DNA from: Gordonia hongkongensis
GTDB lineage: Bacteria > Actinomycetota > Actinomycetes > Mycobacteriales > Mycobacteriaceae
Assembly (NCBI RefSeq): GCF_023078355.1
Contig: NZ_CP095552.1
Span: 3,162,001 to 3,226,000 of the forward strand
DNA length: 64,000 bases
Direction: 5' to 3'
The translations under genes and the position numbers were made by a program. The notes under the pieces were generated by a model that was not told where the DNA came from, searched no databases, and was given only the letters and a program-made list of their open reading frames with translations. How positions within the stretch are numbered: position 1 is the stretch's first letter; every line of letters starts with the position of its first letter. Below are positions 37,882 to 42,842 of the stretch, piece after piece.

Positions 37882-38481
37882 ATGAAGCGCATTCGCCTCC
37901 TCGCCGTCATGGCCCTGGCCATCACGGCACTCACCGTCTCCTACGGCACCGCACACGGCGCTCCCGCGCCCGCGGCGCCGTCCCACTTCTCCAGCGCATC
38001 CGCCGACGGGACCTCCATCACCTCCCAGCTCCGCAACGCGACGTTCGTCGCAGGCGAGCAGGAACTCCGGGTCGTCGACTCACACGGACGGACCATCGAG
38101 CGAATCGGACTGGTGCTGCCGTTCGACGGCGCCGCTGTCCCGATGCGCGCGAAGGTCTCCGCCGACCGCACCCAGGCGACGTTCACCCCGATCCTCACCC
38201 CCGAAGCCCGCGCGGCGATCGCTGCCGGCGTCCGCCCGGCCTCGGCGAAGAAGGACCGCGCCTACCAGCAGATGATCTGGCACATCACCAACGGGTGGAA
38301 CCGCGGCGGCAACGTCACCACCGCCATCGGCGCTCTCGCCGGCCTCATCATCGGCTGCATCATCATCGTCGGCTGTGTCTGGGGTGCGGGCGTCGGCGCG
38401 GCCATCGGAGCGGTCATCGGTATCAACAACGGCGACCCCCGCGCCGGGCAGTCGATCCTGAACTGGATCAACACTCCGTAA
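37882..38481 (+). CDS. Secreted actinobacterial protein with C-terminal glycine-zipper segment
   Basis: The 199-residue precursor begins with a signal peptide (MKRIRLLAVMALAITALTVS, cleavage near AHGAP). A soluble beta domain of about 100 residues (ATFVAGEQELRVVDSHG, IGLVLPFDG) follows, then a Gly/Ile-rich hydrophobic stretch GALAGLIIGCIIIVGCVWG and GVGAAIGAVIGINNG. The layout matches small exported proteins common in Gordonia and relatives (DUF8020-like). No enzymatic motif is seen. A hairpin terminator follows 45 bases later, so it is a single-gene unit. Confidence 0.8.
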   Translation: MKRIRLLAVMALAITALTVSYGTAHGAPAPAAPSHFSSASADGTSITSQLRNATFVAGEQELRVVDSHGRTIERIGLVLPFDGAAVPMRAKVSADRTQATFTPILTPEARAAIAAGVRPASAKKDRAYQQMIWHITNGWNRGGNVTTAIGALAGLIIGCIIIVGCVWGAGVGAAIGAVIGINNGDPRAGQSILNWINTP

Positions 38482-38525
38482 GTCCAGCGAGCAGGGCTTG
38501 GCTTCTCGGGTCCCAGATGCTGCAG

Positions 38526-38559
38526 AATCCCCAACTCCGCGTGCGGGGTTGGGGATTTT
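38526..38559 (+). terminator. Rho-independent terminator
   Basis: AATCCCCAAC (38526-38535) pairs with GTTGGGGATT (38548-38557), with an inner CCGC/GCGG pair, and the stem runs into TTTT. It ends the transcript of the secreted-protein gene. Confidence 0.88.
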
Positions 38560-38562
38560 CTG

Positions 38563-39729
38563 CTTCTTCCGGCCTCGTGGACGCGTTTTCGGCGCAGGAG
38601 GCCGCGTGCACCGCGCCGTGGAAGGTCGAAGGCCGTCAGTGACCGTGTCGGCAATCGGCGCCGAACGTCCGACCCCGGGTCACACTCGCGCATCTCACCC
38701 AATGCAGATGCGCGTGTTCAGTCCGGTGGCGACGTCGTAACCGGCCGCTCAGATGCAGCAGATGACCCGCCGAACCTGACCGGCCGGGGCCCGATGATGG
38801 GTTGATCGATGTACGTCACGGCTCGTTCCATCAACGAGTTCGCCGCGCGCACACTGGTGGAGGTCGGTGCGGCTCTCTCGACCCCACGTGCTCCCGCCGA
38901 CGACTCGTCGCCGAAAAGACCCCTCCGCGAACCGAGTTCGGCGCACCTCGAGACGGGGTAGCCCGGACGACTGGACATCGGCCCGACGTCTATCGACTTC
39001 AACCGACCCGAACCGTCGCCGACCTCCGGCATCGGATCGGATGGAGACCGCCGGATACATGTCTCACTACCCAGGACCCGGCGGGTCACCGCGACCGGAG
39101 AACACCGGGTCGTAACCCCGCCGCGCACCCACCCACGGGGCGCCACAAGAGTGCGTCATCGCACCAGGCCGAGAACCGCCGGCCGGCCACACCCGAGGGA
39201 TACGCCCTCAACAGCCAACGCGCCCACATCGATACCTGGACAGGGGTGTAGCCATCGCTGAAGATGCGGTAGGCGACGCCACCGCGACACAGCTGTTTCA
39301 CCTCCAGCGAGTAATGCTGACCTTGCCCCCCGGATAAGCGGCACGACGGCTCCGCCGGTCCCACGTATCGCCCGCACCATCGAGGCGACCGTTTCGACGA
39401 CCCAGTCAGTGTCTCGGCGATAGCAATTCCCGCATACTCAGCGGCATCTGAAATCGCTGAGCCGGACGATACCCTTCGGCCCCCAACATATGTCGCCGCT
39501 ACCTTCCGCACGCCGGCAACGCCAGTCCGGTCGCCGCCGGGGACGTCGAGACTGCTCCATAAGTGAACATGCACACCCGATCCGGGCGTATTCGAAAACT
39601 GGAGCGACTTGAACCAGCCACTGATCACGATCCACGCACGGTCAACGCGAATCGACGCACAGTCAACGAAATATGCTGCACAGTCGATCGATTCACGGTT
39701 CTCGGCTTGTGGAATTTCCTCGAAATCGA
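38563..39729. other. Gene-poor region of about 1.2 kb
   Basis: No protein I recognise is encoded here. Open frames exist on both strands (for example 180 codons on the minus strand at 39086-39628), but they lack family motifs. A 50-codon plus-strand frame from ATG 38809 to 38961 (MYVTARSINEFAARTLVEVG) is the best small candidate. Base composition drops towards the end, where three degenerate 20-base direct repeats occur (39631-39690). It may be decayed accessory DNA. Before the IS insertion its right end was the upstream region of the HNH gene at 41142. Confidence 0.5.
39631..39690. repeat. Three degenerate 20-base tandem repeats
   Basis: Units at 39631-39650, 39651-39670 and 39671-39690 share the core (C/T)G-CAC-(A/G)-GTC. 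The first two match at most positions (ACGCACGGTCAACG and ACGCACAGTCAACG) and the third is more diverged. They lie 40 bases before the IS insertion point, in what was the upstream region of the HNH gene, so they may bind a regulator. Confidence 0.55.
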
Positions 39730-39737
39730 ACGCATGT

Positions 39738-41116
39738 GGATCTCCTGACCTGAAAGTGGGCGGTTTTCGGTCAGTTTCGATGTTGGAGTTCCGGGCATGC
39801 GCCGCCCCTGGTGAGGTTGGCCATCGCGATCAAAGCATCGGGAGTGTGAAATCCGTATGACCGCTTTGTCAATGACCGCAGATGGCAGTTCGTCGCCTCG
39901 ACTCGAGCGTTGCTCATCTGACACGTGACCGCGTTGTAGATTTGCACCTCTCGTTTACGGATACTCGGCGCCGAGGTGCGAATCTCGGGTATATCGCAGG
40001 CCTCTGCCTTCCTCAACCAGCGCCGCAACGGCGCCCAACATGAGGAGTACGCACCTGAAAGTATGTGCCTTATTTCTTCTTTCATCTGATACGCACGGGC
40101 CAGCACACTGTTGGCATCGGCGACCACGATGGACTGCAGCCGCTCTTGACTCTCGGTGAGGTTGTCAGGATTCTTCAACAACGCCCACCTCAATCGGCCG
40201 CGTTCCACCTTTGACAAGCCAGCTATCCGGCTCATCACCCGAGACCGGCATCGATCCAGCGCCTGATTGACCCACTGCAGCACATGAAATGGGTCCATAC
40301 ACCAGTACGCTCCCGGCGCCCGCTCGGCGAGGACCGCACCGATGTACTCGGCGCCATCAGCACTGATGTGGGTGATCTCGCCGGCTCGCACATCACCCAG
40401 TTCATCGAAGAACCGCTCGATGGTCGCCTTCTTGGCGCCCTCACCAGCCCACACCAGTTGCCCTGTGTCATGGTTGACCACGACGACCAAGTACCGGCGG
40501 CCCTTGCGATAGGCGATCTCATCGATACCGATGCGCCGCAACCCGTTCAAGCGTTTGGTGAGTCCGACATGATCGTCGACCACACGCTCGACGATACGAG
40601 ACACCGTCCGCCAGGAGACCCGCAGGTAGGCGCTCACCGCGGTCATCGGGGCGTGCGCACACATCCACGCGACGGTGTCGTCAAACGCCCTGGTCATCTT
40701 CACTTCCGGACGTGCCCACGGAACCAACTCAGTCTTCACACCATGGCGAGGGCACCGCACACGCGTCGCGGGCAGCTCGAGGAAACACCGCCAGCCGCCC
40801 ATATCCAGATGCCGCCACAACCGCGGTGCCGGCGGCTGATCGTAACCCGGGCAGCGCTTCTTGCACTGCGGACACCGTGATCGTGCGTTCTTGTGCAGTT
40901 CTAGTGTCGCCACCATGACGTGCCCGCGATCATCCTCATCGAACCTGACACCCACGACACGGGCACGCTCGATTCCAAGCAACTTCTGCAGTACTCTGAC
41001 AGTGCGCAACGCCCACTCCTCTAGGTCTTTTTCTTCGCAAGTCAAAACCTAAGCGAGACTGGGCGTTGCGTGCATTAGGCTCGCTAAAAGTAGCCCACTT
41101 CAGGGTCAGAAGAGCC
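39738..41116 (-). mobile_element. ISL3-family insertion sequence with intact target duplication
   Basis: This 1379-base element has one transposase and imperfect terminal inverted repeats. The left end reads GGATCTCCTGACCTGAA and the right end, on the minus strand, GGCTCTTCTGACCCTGAA. The GGnTCT start is typical of ISL3 elements. It is flanked by identical 8-base direct repeats, ACGCATGT at 39730-39737 and 41117-41124, the target size expected for this family. The perfect duplication implies recent insertion. Removing the element and one repeat restores a continuous upstream region for the HNH gene. Confidence 0.93.
39771..41009 (-). CDS. ISL3-family transposase
   Basis: The DDE transposase (412 residues from the TTG at 41009) has the ISL3 layout. 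An N-terminal zinc finger (CPQCKKRCPGY, then CPRHG) is followed by a helix-turn-helix (SWRTVSRIVERVV) and a catalytic core with IGIDEIAYRKGRRYLVVVVNHDTG, ISADGAEYIGAVLAERAPGAYWCMDPFHVLQWVNQALD and the C-terminal NARVEATNCHLRSLTKRSYGFHTPDALIAM supplying the Glu. The TTG is preferred because a GAGGAG site precedes it and VRVLQKLLGIE is the family start. Another TTG at 41045 is in frame. The gene is complete, so the element may be active. Confidence 0.93.
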   Translation of the reverse strand: MRTVRVLQKLLGIERARVVGVRFDEDDRGHVMVATLELHKNARSRCPQCKKRCPGYDQPPAPRLWRHLDMGGWRCFLELPATRVRCPRHGVKTELVPWARPEVKMTRAFDDTVAWMCAHAPMTAVSAYLRVSWRTVSRIVERVVDDHVGLTKRLNGLRRIGIDEIAYRKGRRYLVVVVNHDTGQLVWAGEGAKKATIERFFDELGDVRAGEITHISADGAEYIGAVLAERAPGAYWCMDPFHVLQWVNQALDRCRSRVMSRIAGLSKVERGRLRWALLKNPDNLTESQERLQSIVVADANSVLARAYQMKEEIRHILSGAYSSCWAPLRRWLRKAEACDIPEIRTSAPSIRKREVQIYNAVTCQMSNARVEATNCHLRSLTKRSYGFHTPDALIAMANLTRGGACPELQHRN

Positions 41117-41129
41117 ACGCATGTTCCGG
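41117..41129 (+). promoter_or_regulatory. Right remnant of an SOS (LexA) box split by the IS
   Basis: With the IS and one target repeat removed, the junction reads TCGAAC-GCAT-GTTCCG, matching the actinobacterial LexA consensus TCGAAC-N4-GTTCGA at 10 of 12 positions. The left half remains at 39726-39737 and the right half here, 12 bases before the HNH start codon. The element therefore sits inside the box. Regulation by LexA is inferred from this match. Confidence 0.6.
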
Positions 41130-41141
41130 TACCTTGGAGTC

Positions 41142-42413
41142 ATGCCAGAGCTCGCCACTCTCCTCGATCAACTCATCGAGACCACCCCGCCCGCCGACGA
41201 CCCAACCGGCAGAGCAACATTCGACTCCCTCCACACGTGGCGCCTGATCCGCAACCTTGCCGATCACCAGATCGGCACCCACGCAGCACAACTCGACGAA
41301 CTCGGCGTCGCGCAGAAGACCGGCAGCACCACCAAGAAGCTGCTGATCGAGTCAGGACATGCGCCGGCCGCCGCCCTCCGCACCATGCGCAGTGTCGACG
41401 CGCTGCCCAACCTGCCCGCTGTGGCGCGTCACGCTGCCGACGGACGACTGTCGAGCGAGATCGTCGATGCCATCGTCCGCGGCATGAACGAGATCGATAG
41501 ACGTTGCGGGGAAGCGCTTTCCGTCGACAAGCGCTCCCGGTTTGAGATCGAACTCATCGCCCAAGCACTATCCGGTGCAACACCGACTGAAGTGCTCAAG
41601 CATGCGCAGGCCATCGGCAACGCTCTCGGCGATGCGTGTGACGCAGGAACCCCAGCGTCGGACGATGCAAGTTTGAACTCGGTGAGCGCCCACACCACCG
41701 ACGACGGCCGCGTCGAGGTGCGTGCTGATCTCACCCAGGTGGTGGGCGAGAAGTTCTTGGCCATGATCGACGAACGGTCCTGCCCACGACCCGAACCCGA
41801 CAGCACCAAGGATCGTCGCACCGCCGAGCAACGCCGCGCCGACGCCTTCGAATTGATCCTCGACCAAGCCGCGATCGGCGCGACCATCGACACCGTCGGA
41901 AGTCCACGCACGCAGCTCATGCTGACGATCCCCGCGACCGGAGACCTGGCGACGCTGCCGTGGACCGGATCGGTCAGCCAAGCGACCGCGAAACAGGCGT
42001 CGTGCGACGGATCGCTGACCCCTCGAGGCTCGCTTCGCTCGCACCTCGGGGAGCAGGGGCGACTCGACGCTGAGGGCGTACCGCTACAGATGGGCCACAC
42101 CCACCGCTTGTTCCCGGCGCACCTGCGCAAAGCAATGATCGTCCGCGACGCCTGCTGCATCAAATGCGGTGCGCCACCGTCACATACACAGGTCCACCAC
42201 GTCACCCATTGGGCCGACGGCGGCGCCACCGACCTCGACAACGGGTGTCTGCTGTGCCAGCGCTGCCACACCCAGGTCCACCACCACGGCTGGGACATCG
42301 TCATGGGATTTGACCGGCACCCCTGGCTCGTCCCACCCACCTCGATCGACCCGCACCGCCGACCACTACCCGCCTACAACCGCCGCACCATGCGCCTCGA
42401 CGACGCCGCCTGA
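41142..42413 (+). CDS. 13E12-type DUF222/HNH endonuclease-domain protein with repeat-derived insertion
   Basis: The 423-residue protein has an N-terminal DUF222 region (LIRNLADHQIGTHAAQLDELGVAQKTG). A C-terminal HNH nuclease module carries paired CxxC zinc ligands (CCIKCGAPPSHTQVHH and LLCQRCHTQVHHHGW) around the His-Asn-His active site (HHVTHWADGGATDLDNG). Relatives are repeated in mycobacterial and gordonial genomes and often LexA-regulated. The ATG at 41142 follows TTGGAG; an upstream ATG at 41121 lies in the IS target repeat. Between CDGSLTP and LDAEGVPLQMG, residues RGSLRSHLGEQGR are encoded by a copy of the dispersed repeat, apparently replacing four or five usual residues without breaking the frame. 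Confidence 0.88.
   Translation: MPELATLLDQLIETTPPADDPTGRATFDSLHTWRLIRNLADHQIGTHAAQLDELGVAQKTGSTTKKLLIESGHAPAAALRTMRSVDALPNLPAVARHAADGRLSSEIVDAIVRGMNEIDRRCGEALSVDKRSRFEIELIAQALSGATPTEVLKHAQAIGNALGDACDAGTPASDDASLNSVSAHTTDDGRVEVRADLTQVVGEKFLAMIDERSCPRPEPDSTKDRRTAEQRRADAFELILDQAAIGATIDTVGSPRTQLMLTIPATGDLATLPWTGSVSQATAKQASCDGSLTPRGSLRSHLGEQGRLDAEGVPLQMGHTHRLFPAHLRKAMIVRDACCIKCGAPPSHTQVHHVTHWADGGATDLDNGCLLCQRCHTQVHHHGWDIVMGFDRHPWLVPPTSIDPHRRPLPAYNRRTMRLDDAA
42021..42056 (-). repeat. Dispersed repeat copy inside the HNH coding sequence
   Basis: On the minus strand this reads TGCTCCCCGAGGTGCGAGCG followed by AAGCGAGCCTCGAGGG, matching the left arm of the intergenic elements at 55040 and 55281 apart from a few bases. 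It is in frame with the HNH gene and adds an Arg/Ser-rich loop before the HNH module. Confidence 0.85.
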
Positions 42414-42512
42414 CCGGCCGTCCGACAACCACTTTCGCGTAGCACCCTCCGCACCCGGGCCATACCCGGGACCGCATCCGTACTTTGACAACTCCACAGC
42501 GGAATACGACCG

Positions 42513-42548
42513 ACCCGCTCCCACTCGGCCATTCGAGCGGGAGCGGGT
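42513..42548 (+). terminator. Hairpin, possible terminator of the HNH gene
   Basis: ACCCGCTCCC (42513-42522) pairs with GGGAGCGGGT (42539-42548), with an inner CTCG/CGAG pair. No U tract follows. It lies 100 bases after the HNH stop in the 504-base gap 42414-42917, which otherwise holds the alk operator and no gene I can support. Confidence 0.5.
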
Positions 42549-42842
42549 TCCGGGCAGCCGAACCCGAACTCGGCGGCGACCACAGGAACAGGCCTCGGAC
42601 AAGCACCACGACAGCGAGCAGCGCACCGCCCGTGCGGAGCCGTGATGGGCAAGACCTCGGCCGTGGCCATGGAACAGCTCAAGGTGCTCGTGTTCACCGG
42701 TGTGCGAACCGACTGGCCGACTCGACGACCGAGATGAAGGACAGGGCGGTCTCGAAGGCCCCGGCAGCGGCGAAGCGATGTCCCTGCCGCCCAGGTCCCC
42801 GACGGACGTCCCTGAACCGGGGTCTCTTTACAAATCTCGGTG

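What the first reader, a model, noticed from the sequence alone, without database searches (positions are those of the whole stretch)
39726..41142. ISL3 element inserted inside an SOS box of the HNH gene
Removing the IS and one copy of the exact 8-base duplication ACGCATGT restores TCGAACGCATGTTCCG, matching the LexA consensus TCGAAC-N4-GTTCGA at 10 of 12 positions, 12 bases before the HNH start codon. Members of the 13E12 family are LexA-regulated in M. tuberculosis. The insertion would uncouple this putative nuclease from DNA-damage control, or put it under an IS promoter.
Basis: partly seen in the sequence, partly recalled or inferred. Interest (0 to 1): 0.72.

Follow-up and report, generated by a model that had tools for sequence, protein, structure and literature searches.

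The report
Jumping gene that targets SOS switches
A small bacterial jumping gene sits in the middle of what looks like a DNA-damage control switch beside a nuclease gene, and close relatives of it in other species have landed in the same kind of switch again and again, so this group of jumping genes appears to aim at that sequence.

Summary
A 1379-bp ISL3-family element (39738-41116) with exact 8-bp duplications splits a LexA-type box, TCGA|ACGCATGT|TCCG, before a DUF222-HNH (13E12-type) gene of a Gordonia. Unbroken boxes precede paralogs and an IS-free relative beside alkB in another Gordonia. At least 22 of 38 DUF222 matches in this genome have such a box (this one included), 15 in one layout: box, 1 nt, TAnnnT, 6 nt, ATG.

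The transposase belongs to a 100/100-supported clade of 15 sampled rows from several genera. Of 14 insertion sites with intact duplications, 13 lie on a LexA-like palindrome whose central 8 bp are the duplication (background 0.11% per position); 0 of 26 control ISL3 sites do. Most are promoters of DUF222 genes; two lie inside other genes, so a promoter is not needed. I conclude that the clade selects TCGAACRYRYGTTCGA-like DNA, most simply by the transposase itself; LexA guidance is not excluded. Here the insertion breaks one half-site and displaces the -35 region; no outward promoter was found, so loss of SOS-induced expression is likelier than activation. Nothing was tested at the bench.

The parts
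39627..39737 (+). upstream promoter region shared with DUF222 paralogs, with iterons of the type GCACAGTCRACG; the homology runs to the last base of the left duplication
   Evidence: (matches to about 978-1088 of the left-flank query at paralog promoters)
39720..39725 (+). -35-like hexamer TCGAAA, 17 nt before TACCTT in the IS-free arrangement
   Evidence: assignment by inference
39726..39737 (+). left 12 bases of the LexA-type box (TCGA + duplication ACGCATGT)
39730..39737 (+). left target-site duplication ACGCATGT
39738..41116 (-). ISL3-family insertion sequence, 1379 bp
39738..39761 (+). left terminal inverted repeat
39771..41045 (-). transposase, 424 aa (zinc ribbon, HTH, DDE_Tnp_ISL3), coordinates with the stop codon
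41093..41116 (-). right terminal inverted repeat, next to the HNH promoter remnant
41117..41124 (+). right target-site duplication ACGCATGT
41125..41128 (+). last four bases (TCCG) of the LexA-type box
41130..41135 (+). -10-like TACCTT, 6 nt before ATG; a TAnnnT stands at this place in 15 DUF222 genes of this genome, this one included
   Evidence: assignment by inference
41142..42413 (+). DUF222-HNH (13E12-type) gene, 423 aa, open reading frame intact

Best explanation
The element is one member of an ISL3-family clade whose transposase inserts preferentially into LexA-type palindromes, consensus TCGA-ACRYRYGT-TCGA, duplicating the central 8 bp. DUF222/HNH (13E12) genes are the usual victims because they are numerous, apparently dispensable, and carry this operator-type box in their promoters. 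SHOWN by sequence: the insertion, the duplication, the split box, the box before many family members, and the recurrence of such insertions in one clade. INFERRED: that the transposase itself reads the palindrome (rather than being led there by bound LexA); that the boxes are LexA operators of leaderless-type promoters; and that at this locus the insertion, by displacing the -35 region and breaking one half-site, removes SOS-inducible expression of the nuclease.
For: 13 of 14 clade insertions with an 8/8 duplication match TCGAACN4GTTCGA with at most 3 mismatches; background 161 of 141,290 positions, binomial 8e-38. Leave-one-out scoring puts 11 of 14 sites among the best 8 of 399,700 positions of a sample of the window's genome. 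0 of 26 control ISL3 insertions match; Fisher 1e-9. The tree groups the 14 rows labelled box-inserted (13 plus L151) and L145 in one 100/100 clade. Both IS orientations occur. The neighbours are different genes in different genomes: 7 of 10 neighbour ORFs scanned score as DUF222, besides the window's own. Further half or decayed sites agree: L151, L155, L043 in this genome. Layout box-1 nt-TAnnnT-6 nt-ATG in 15 of 38 DUF222 matches. The one lexA found here has TCGAACAAATGTTTGA upstream.
Against: One clade copy with a clean duplication (L145) is not in a box (6 mismatches), and the second copy in this very genome (L042/L156, decayed duplication, inside what reads as an ABC-transporter gene) fits with 4 mismatches only. 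The set is small and not fully independent: 5 of the 14 sites belong to near-identical elements of two genomes (G003, G034), and L146 and L158 have the same target sequence on opposite strands before near-identical genes; counting that pair once leaves 12 of 13. The genome searches drew a sample and scored few candidates per genome. No expression, binding or transposition was measured. Selection against other insertions could exaggerate the share in DUF222 promoters.
Confidence: 0.85

Rival explanations
1. LexA-guided targeting: the transposase is drawn to operators because LexA (or LexA-bent DNA) is there, so real SOS operators are hit more than look-alike sequences.
For: 8 of the 12 sites with at most 2 mismatches are DUF222 promoters (L147 by my reading, without a Pfam match), although such promoters are only about 2% of the sites of that quality in the genome (from the counts). 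The centre of the hit sites follows RYRY, which I recall as part of the LexA/DinR consensus.
Against: Two 8/8-resolved insertions lie in coding sequence (L150 hydrolase-like, L163 group II intron ORF). With a weight matrix instead of mismatch counts, 13 of 15 DUF222 box sequences scored rank within about the best 125 sites of the genome, L022 and L037 much lower (the matrix was trained on the hit sites, so it leans towards such boxes). A related clade sits in another palindrome, which suggests that such transposases read palindromes themselves.
Confidence: 0.25
2. Chance: one IS happened to fall into one SOS box, and the first reader's uncoupling story is all there is.
For: Boxes with at most 2 mismatches are common (13 in the window), and one copy each in G030 and G000 is not in a convincing box.
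Against: 13 of 14 resolved clade sites are boxes, against 0 of 26 in controls.
Confidence: 0.03
3. Co-duplication: IS and DUF222 gene spread together as one unit, so the repeated association reflects few insertion events.
For: DUF222 genes are themselves multicopy (38 matches here), and L146 and L158 sit before near-identical genes with the same duplication read on opposite strands.
Against: Duplications and flanks otherwise differ between sites, the IS faces both ways, the neighbouring genes differ, and L150 and L163 are not before DUF222 genes at all.
Confidence: 0.04
4. The insertion is adaptive at this locus: the IS gives the nuclease gene constitutive expression free of LexA.
For: The reading frame is intact (423 aa), the -10-like TACCTT remains, and the box is broken.
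Against: No outward promoter was found by the consensus scan, the original -35 region is displaced by the 1379-bp element, and orientation is balanced in related insertions (5 against 6).
Confidence: 0.12

Closest known systems
ISL3 family insertion sequences (DDE transposase, 8-bp duplications)
   Same: Transposase domains, terminal inverted repeats and 8-bp target duplication.
   Different: Target preference for a LexA-type palindrome; 26 resolved sites of related ISL3 elements do not show it. The nine paper searches named in the full report listed no paper describing it.
Insertion sequences with preferred targets, such as those that enter REP palindromes or terminators (recalled, not tested)
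   Same: Recurrent entry at one kind of palindromic, multicopy genomic site.
   Different: Here the site is an operator-type box of the SOS regulon, mostly at promoters of a nuclease gene family.
13E12/REP13E12 (DUF222-HNH) genes of M. tuberculosis, LexA regulon
   Same: DUF222 + HNH protein with a LexA-type box before the gene; in M. tuberculosis several 13E12 members are in the LexA regulon (PMC5005354, PMC4181829 passages).
   Different: 38 DUF222 matches in this genome; PMC4181829 speaks of 10 HNH-domain 13E12 genes. This copy has its box split by an IS.
IscB-type RNA-guided HNH nucleases
   Same: Weak local match of the HNH part (30 bits against a cut-off of 175).
   Different: Far below cut-off; not a member.

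Membership tests
ISL3 insertion sequence | ISL3-type DDE transposase | tested here: met
   PF01610 189 bits, PF13542, PF14690; NF033550 257 bits, cut-off 180
ISL3 insertion sequence | terminal inverted repeats and 8-bp target duplication | tested here: met
LexA (SOS) operator | match to TCGAAC-N4-GTTCGA | tested here: met
   10 of 12 in the empty arrangement; identical 16-mer before L035 and L097
LexA (SOS) operator | placed in a promoter of a host with a LexA using this consensus | tested here: met
   by sequence only: box before TAnnnT and ATG; one lexA match, with TCGAACAAATGTTTGA upstream
LexA (SOS) operator | binding by LexA and DNA-damage induction | not testable with these tools
   needs EMSA/ChIP and expression data
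13E12 / DUF222-HNH family | DUF222 domain followed by HNH | tested here: met
   PF02720 47.4 bits (cut-off 24.4), PF01844 37.6 bits (cut-off 21.4)
Target-specific insertion sequence | recurrent insertion at one sequence, above background and above related elements | tested here: met
   13 of 14 against 0 of 26; background 0.00114
Target-specific insertion sequence | specificity shown in transposition assays | not testable with these tools
   bench experiment needed

The most novel reading that the evidence does not exclude
LexA itself marks the targets: transposases of this clade are guided to LexA-occupied operators, so the SOS regulon, and the DUF222 nuclease genes above all, is their landing ground and target supply varies with DNA damage. 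More broadly, ISL3 transposases would be natural readers of regulatory palindromes, each clade with its own.
Probability: 0.22. Interest if true: 0.87.

Novelty: new variant of a known kind. Interest (0 to 1): 0.75.

Why it matters
Insertion sequences with a defined target are few (recalled), and the paper searches made here listed none reported to aim at a repressor operator. If confirmed, the clade gives a compact, testable case of DNA target reading by a DDE transposase, with a sister clade in another palindrome for comparison. It would also mean that one mobile element family repeatedly rewires DNA-damage control in Gordonia and relatives by splitting operators of nuclease genes, and that 13E12/DUF222 promoters serve as landing sites.

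Tried and rejected
Outward IS promoter: none by an E. coli-type consensus scan. Start codon inside the box (ATG of GCATGT): in frame and shared by close paralogs, but other subfamilies keep the box 13 nt before ATG without it, so ATG 41142 is preferred. Ortholog with the same orientation at the alkB locus: not found. In six relatives (L198, L199, L201, L202, L203, L204) the flanking gene and alkB are adjacent with no DUF222 gene between, and G038 has an IS-free DUF222 gene there in the opposite orientation. IS relatives in viral contigs: no stretch matched the six peptide patterns used. Of eight named Gordonia homologs, L093, L094 and L096 lack a good box before the matched start (3, 5 and 5 mismatches; the matches of L094 and L096 begin inside the protein). 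The 3-mismatch hits of L013 and L020 and the 2-mismatch hit of L019 were judged chance and not counted as boxes. The first script on paralogs did not reverse-complement minus-strand loci among L001-L030; its figures for those are void and were redone. The estimate that DUF222 boxes are 2% of candidate sites overstates the case; the matrix is fairer though trained on the hits. A pattern search for IS ends in 59 Gordonia genomes gave mostly chance one-mismatch hits and was not used for the tally. The protein search scored 7997 candidates, listed 120 of 2453 hits, and shows identity of near-full-length relatives falling from 58% to 50%; it gives no insertion sites. Rows left out of the 14/26 tally: L151, L155, L156/L042 and L033/L043 (decayed, half or broken ends), L152, L154, L162, L167, L169, L173, L180, L182, L184, L186 and L195 (no credible duplication; where the script proposed a site it had 7 or more mismatches), and 14 further places for which no locus was returned. 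One control (L183) has 7 of 8 duplicated bases.
Full report
WHAT IS THERE. The window lies in a 5.41-Mb genome (G000, two contigs) of the genus Gordonia: the eight named relatives of the HNH gene found are all Gordonia. A 1379-bp element occupies 39738-41116, with inverted ends and the exact duplication ACGCATGT on both sides. Its gene is an ISL3-family transposase on the minus strand. To the right begins a DUF222 + HNH gene, 41142-42413. Taking the flanks together, the box reads TCGAACGCATGTTCCG, 10 of 12 positions of TCGAAC-N4-GTTCGA, ending 13 nt before ATG.

THE BOX IS REAL. Such a match alone would mean little: 13 sites with at most 2 mismatches in the window, 61 with 2 and 9 with 1 in a 400-kb genome sample. 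But the genome has 38 DUF222 matches, and I looked upstream of all 38. In 15 of 38, this one included in its empty arrangement, a box ends exactly 13 nt before ATG, followed by 1 nt, TAnnnT and 6 nt; three of these boxes (L022, L029, L037) have 3 mismatches. L012 has a perfect box and L035 has the very 16-mer reconstructed here. Seven more have a box 22-29 nt before ATG (six of the type TCGAACNTACATTCGC: L002, L004-L008; L009 has TCGAACATGTATTCGT). L001 and L003 are weaker cases. 11 have none within 3 mismatches (L010, L011, L016, L017, L018, L023, L026, L038-L041), and three (L013, L019, L020) have only hits judged to be chance. The homology of close paralogs runs through the junction without a break. 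L026 has a box spoiled by 3 extra bases. Outside the genome, five of eight named Gordonia homologs (L090, L091, L092, L095, L097) have an uninterrupted box of at most 2 mismatches at 13 nt. In G038 an IS-free DUF222 gene stands beside alkB with TCGAACGAATGTTCCT, though in opposite orientation, so it is not a strict ortholog of the site. The genome has one match to the LexA DNA-binding domain, with a 1-mismatch box 160 bp upstream of it; a perfect box (L098) precedes an ORF that reads like dnaE2 (my reading, no family search).

PROMOTER MODEL. In L012, L014 and L015 the layout is CTTGAC-TCGAACNNNNNTTCGA-G-TAnnnT-n6-ATG: the box fills the spacer between -35 and -10, and the start codon lies where the transcript would begin. 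Here the corresponding parts are TCGAAA (39720-39725) and TACCTT (41130-41135). This is inference from sequence. After insertion each side keeps 12 of the 16 box bases, but the outer TCGA and the -35 region are parted from the gene by the element. No promoter reading out of the IS was found by an E. coli-type scan.

THE INSERTION IS NOT A CHANCE EVENT. Looking at relatives of the element, I found the same placement elsewhere: a copy in G055 (84% DNA identity) splits TCGA|ACGTTTGA|GCGA before a DUF222 gene, and a broken copy in G000 itself (L033/L043) abuts half a DUF222-type box in the opposite orientation. A search of 401 genomes of the family, drawn from a larger group and scoring at most 4 candidates per genome in the rows shown, gave 19 places at E <= 1e-100. 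A search of 397 genomes of the order added more distant ones. Plasmid records gave further ones, of which I opened 8 of 20. For each locus fetched I looked for the ends and the duplication.

TALLY. Within the clade (53.6% identity and above) 14 sites have 8 of 8 duplicated bases: L143 (window), L144, L145, L146, L147, L148, L149, L150, L157, L158, L159, L160, L161, L163. 13 of 14 have at most 3 mismatches to the box, in the register where the duplication is the central 8 bp; L145 has 6. L150 was read by eye because the script missed it. L146 and L158 have the same target sequence before near-identical genes, so a stricter count is 12 of 13. Background: 161 of 141,290 positions have at most 3 mismatches; binomial 8e-38. 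Leave-one-out matrix scores place 11 of 14 sites among the best 8 of 399,700 positions of a G000 sample and 13 of 14 among the best 216. Controls: 26 sites of ISL3 elements outside the clade (L153; L164, L165, L166, L168, L170; and 20 loci), 0 of 26 with at most 3 mismatches, the lowest being 6; Fisher 1e-9. Twelve of the 26 are from one sister clade and several share a genome. The tree of 40 transposases has the 14 rows labelled box-inserted (13 plus L151, whose duplication is decayed) and L145 in one 100/100 clade. Not counted, but agreeing: L151 (TCGA on both sides), L155 and L043 (half boxes). Not agreeing well: L042/L156, the second copy in G000, with TCGA-CGATGTGC...GCGA (4 mismatches, decayed) inside what reads as an ABC-transporter gene.

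WHICH GENES. Of ten ORFs next to such boxes scanned with Pfam, seven are DUF222 (L144, L146, L158, L159, L161, L149, L151; four of them, L144, L161, L149 and L151, with HNH) and three gave no Pfam match (L157, L147, L160). Two of these three read like N-terminal parts of the family (L147 resembles the window protein, L157 the L096 homolog; my reading). L160 shows only a weak HNH-type match, far below cut-off. The gene at L148 is unknown (one flank is a contig end). L150 is in a hydrolase-like ORF (my reading) and L163 lies between the two annotated parts of a group II intron ORF on plasmid pRWAY02. Among the 11 sites before such genes (window, the ten scanned), the gene lies at the transposase 5' side in 5 and at the 3' side in 6, as expected for a palindrome and not for selection of one outward promoter.

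MECHANISM. The symmetrised site is T C G A A C R Y, mirrored. The simplest account is that the transposase reads this palindrome; the two coding-gene insertions show that a promoter is not needed. LexA guidance is not excluded: DUF222 promoters are hit more often than their share of sites with at most 2 mismatches (8 of 12 against about 2%). However, with the matrix 13 of 15 DUF222 box sequences already rank within about the best 125 sites of the genome (L022 and L037 do not), and insertions elsewhere are likely purged. A sister clade in another family of the order sits at the centre of a different, more or less perfect palindrome, about GAGCGRTATACCTSTGAGGC-ATAAATAT-GCCTCAGAGGTATAYCGCTC (12 of 13 loci by my reading, L180 unresolved; 7 of the 12 were in the tree), which favours direct reading of palindromes.

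LITERATURE. PMC8151990 (passages): five putative HNH endonucleases among the RecA-dependent genes of M. tuberculosis, and SOS boxes before 15 genes. PMC4181829 (passage): 10 HNH-domain genes of the 13E12 family discussed as LexA targets. PMC5005354 (passage): 13E12 members in the LexA regulon, citing Davis et al. 2002, which I did not see. Nine searches combining ISL3 or insertion sequence, LexA, SOS box, 13E12, DUF222, HNH and palindromic or target terms listed no paper, by title and abstract start, on IS targeting of LexA operators (one search listed 20 of 51 papers). The library holds open-licence papers only.

VERDICT. The finding is confirmed, its regulatory reading is plausible but untested, and it opens onto a stronger result: an ISL3 clade with a strong preference for LexA-type boxes.

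Noticed in passing
G000 (38 places); window 41142-42413: The genome carries 38 DUF222 matches; at least 22 have a LexA-type box close before the start (this one in its empty arrangement), which suggests a large SOS-controlled nuclease-like family of unknown purpose.
   Followed up: partly
L174-L179, L188-L192, L194 (G449, G528, G622, G678, G687, G696, G702): A sister ISL3 clade sits at the centre of a different, roughly 48-bp palindrome with duplications such as ATAAATAT; 12 of 13 loci, one unresolved (L180). What that palindrome is remains unknown.
   Followed up: partly
window 39627-39690; L045, L046, L061, L090, L097, L198, L199, L200: Iterons GCACAGTCRACG at 21-bp spacing stand upstream of several DUF222 genes and also directly before alkB in two relatives (L198, L199) that lack a DUF222 gene there.
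   Followed up: partly
window 38481-42822: Compared with six Gordonia genomes in which the gene at 37882-38481 and alkB are adjacent, the window has about 4.3 kb extra (decayed stretch, IS, DUF222-HNH gene); G038 has a DUF222 gene there in the opposite orientation.
   Followed up: partly
window 38992-39531: Decayed stretch 65-71% similar in pieces to places in G034 (three), G003 and G056; perhaps the remnant of another mobile element.
   Followed up: partly
G000:C1:1541000-1546500 (L042): A second copy of the IS (95-96% identical) is split by about 1.5 kb of other DNA and lies in what reads as an ABC-transporter gene.
   Followed up: partly
L026 (G000:C1:1368752-1369633): A close paralog has its box broken by 3 extra bases, a second route by which a DUF222 gene may lose the operator.
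   Followed up: no
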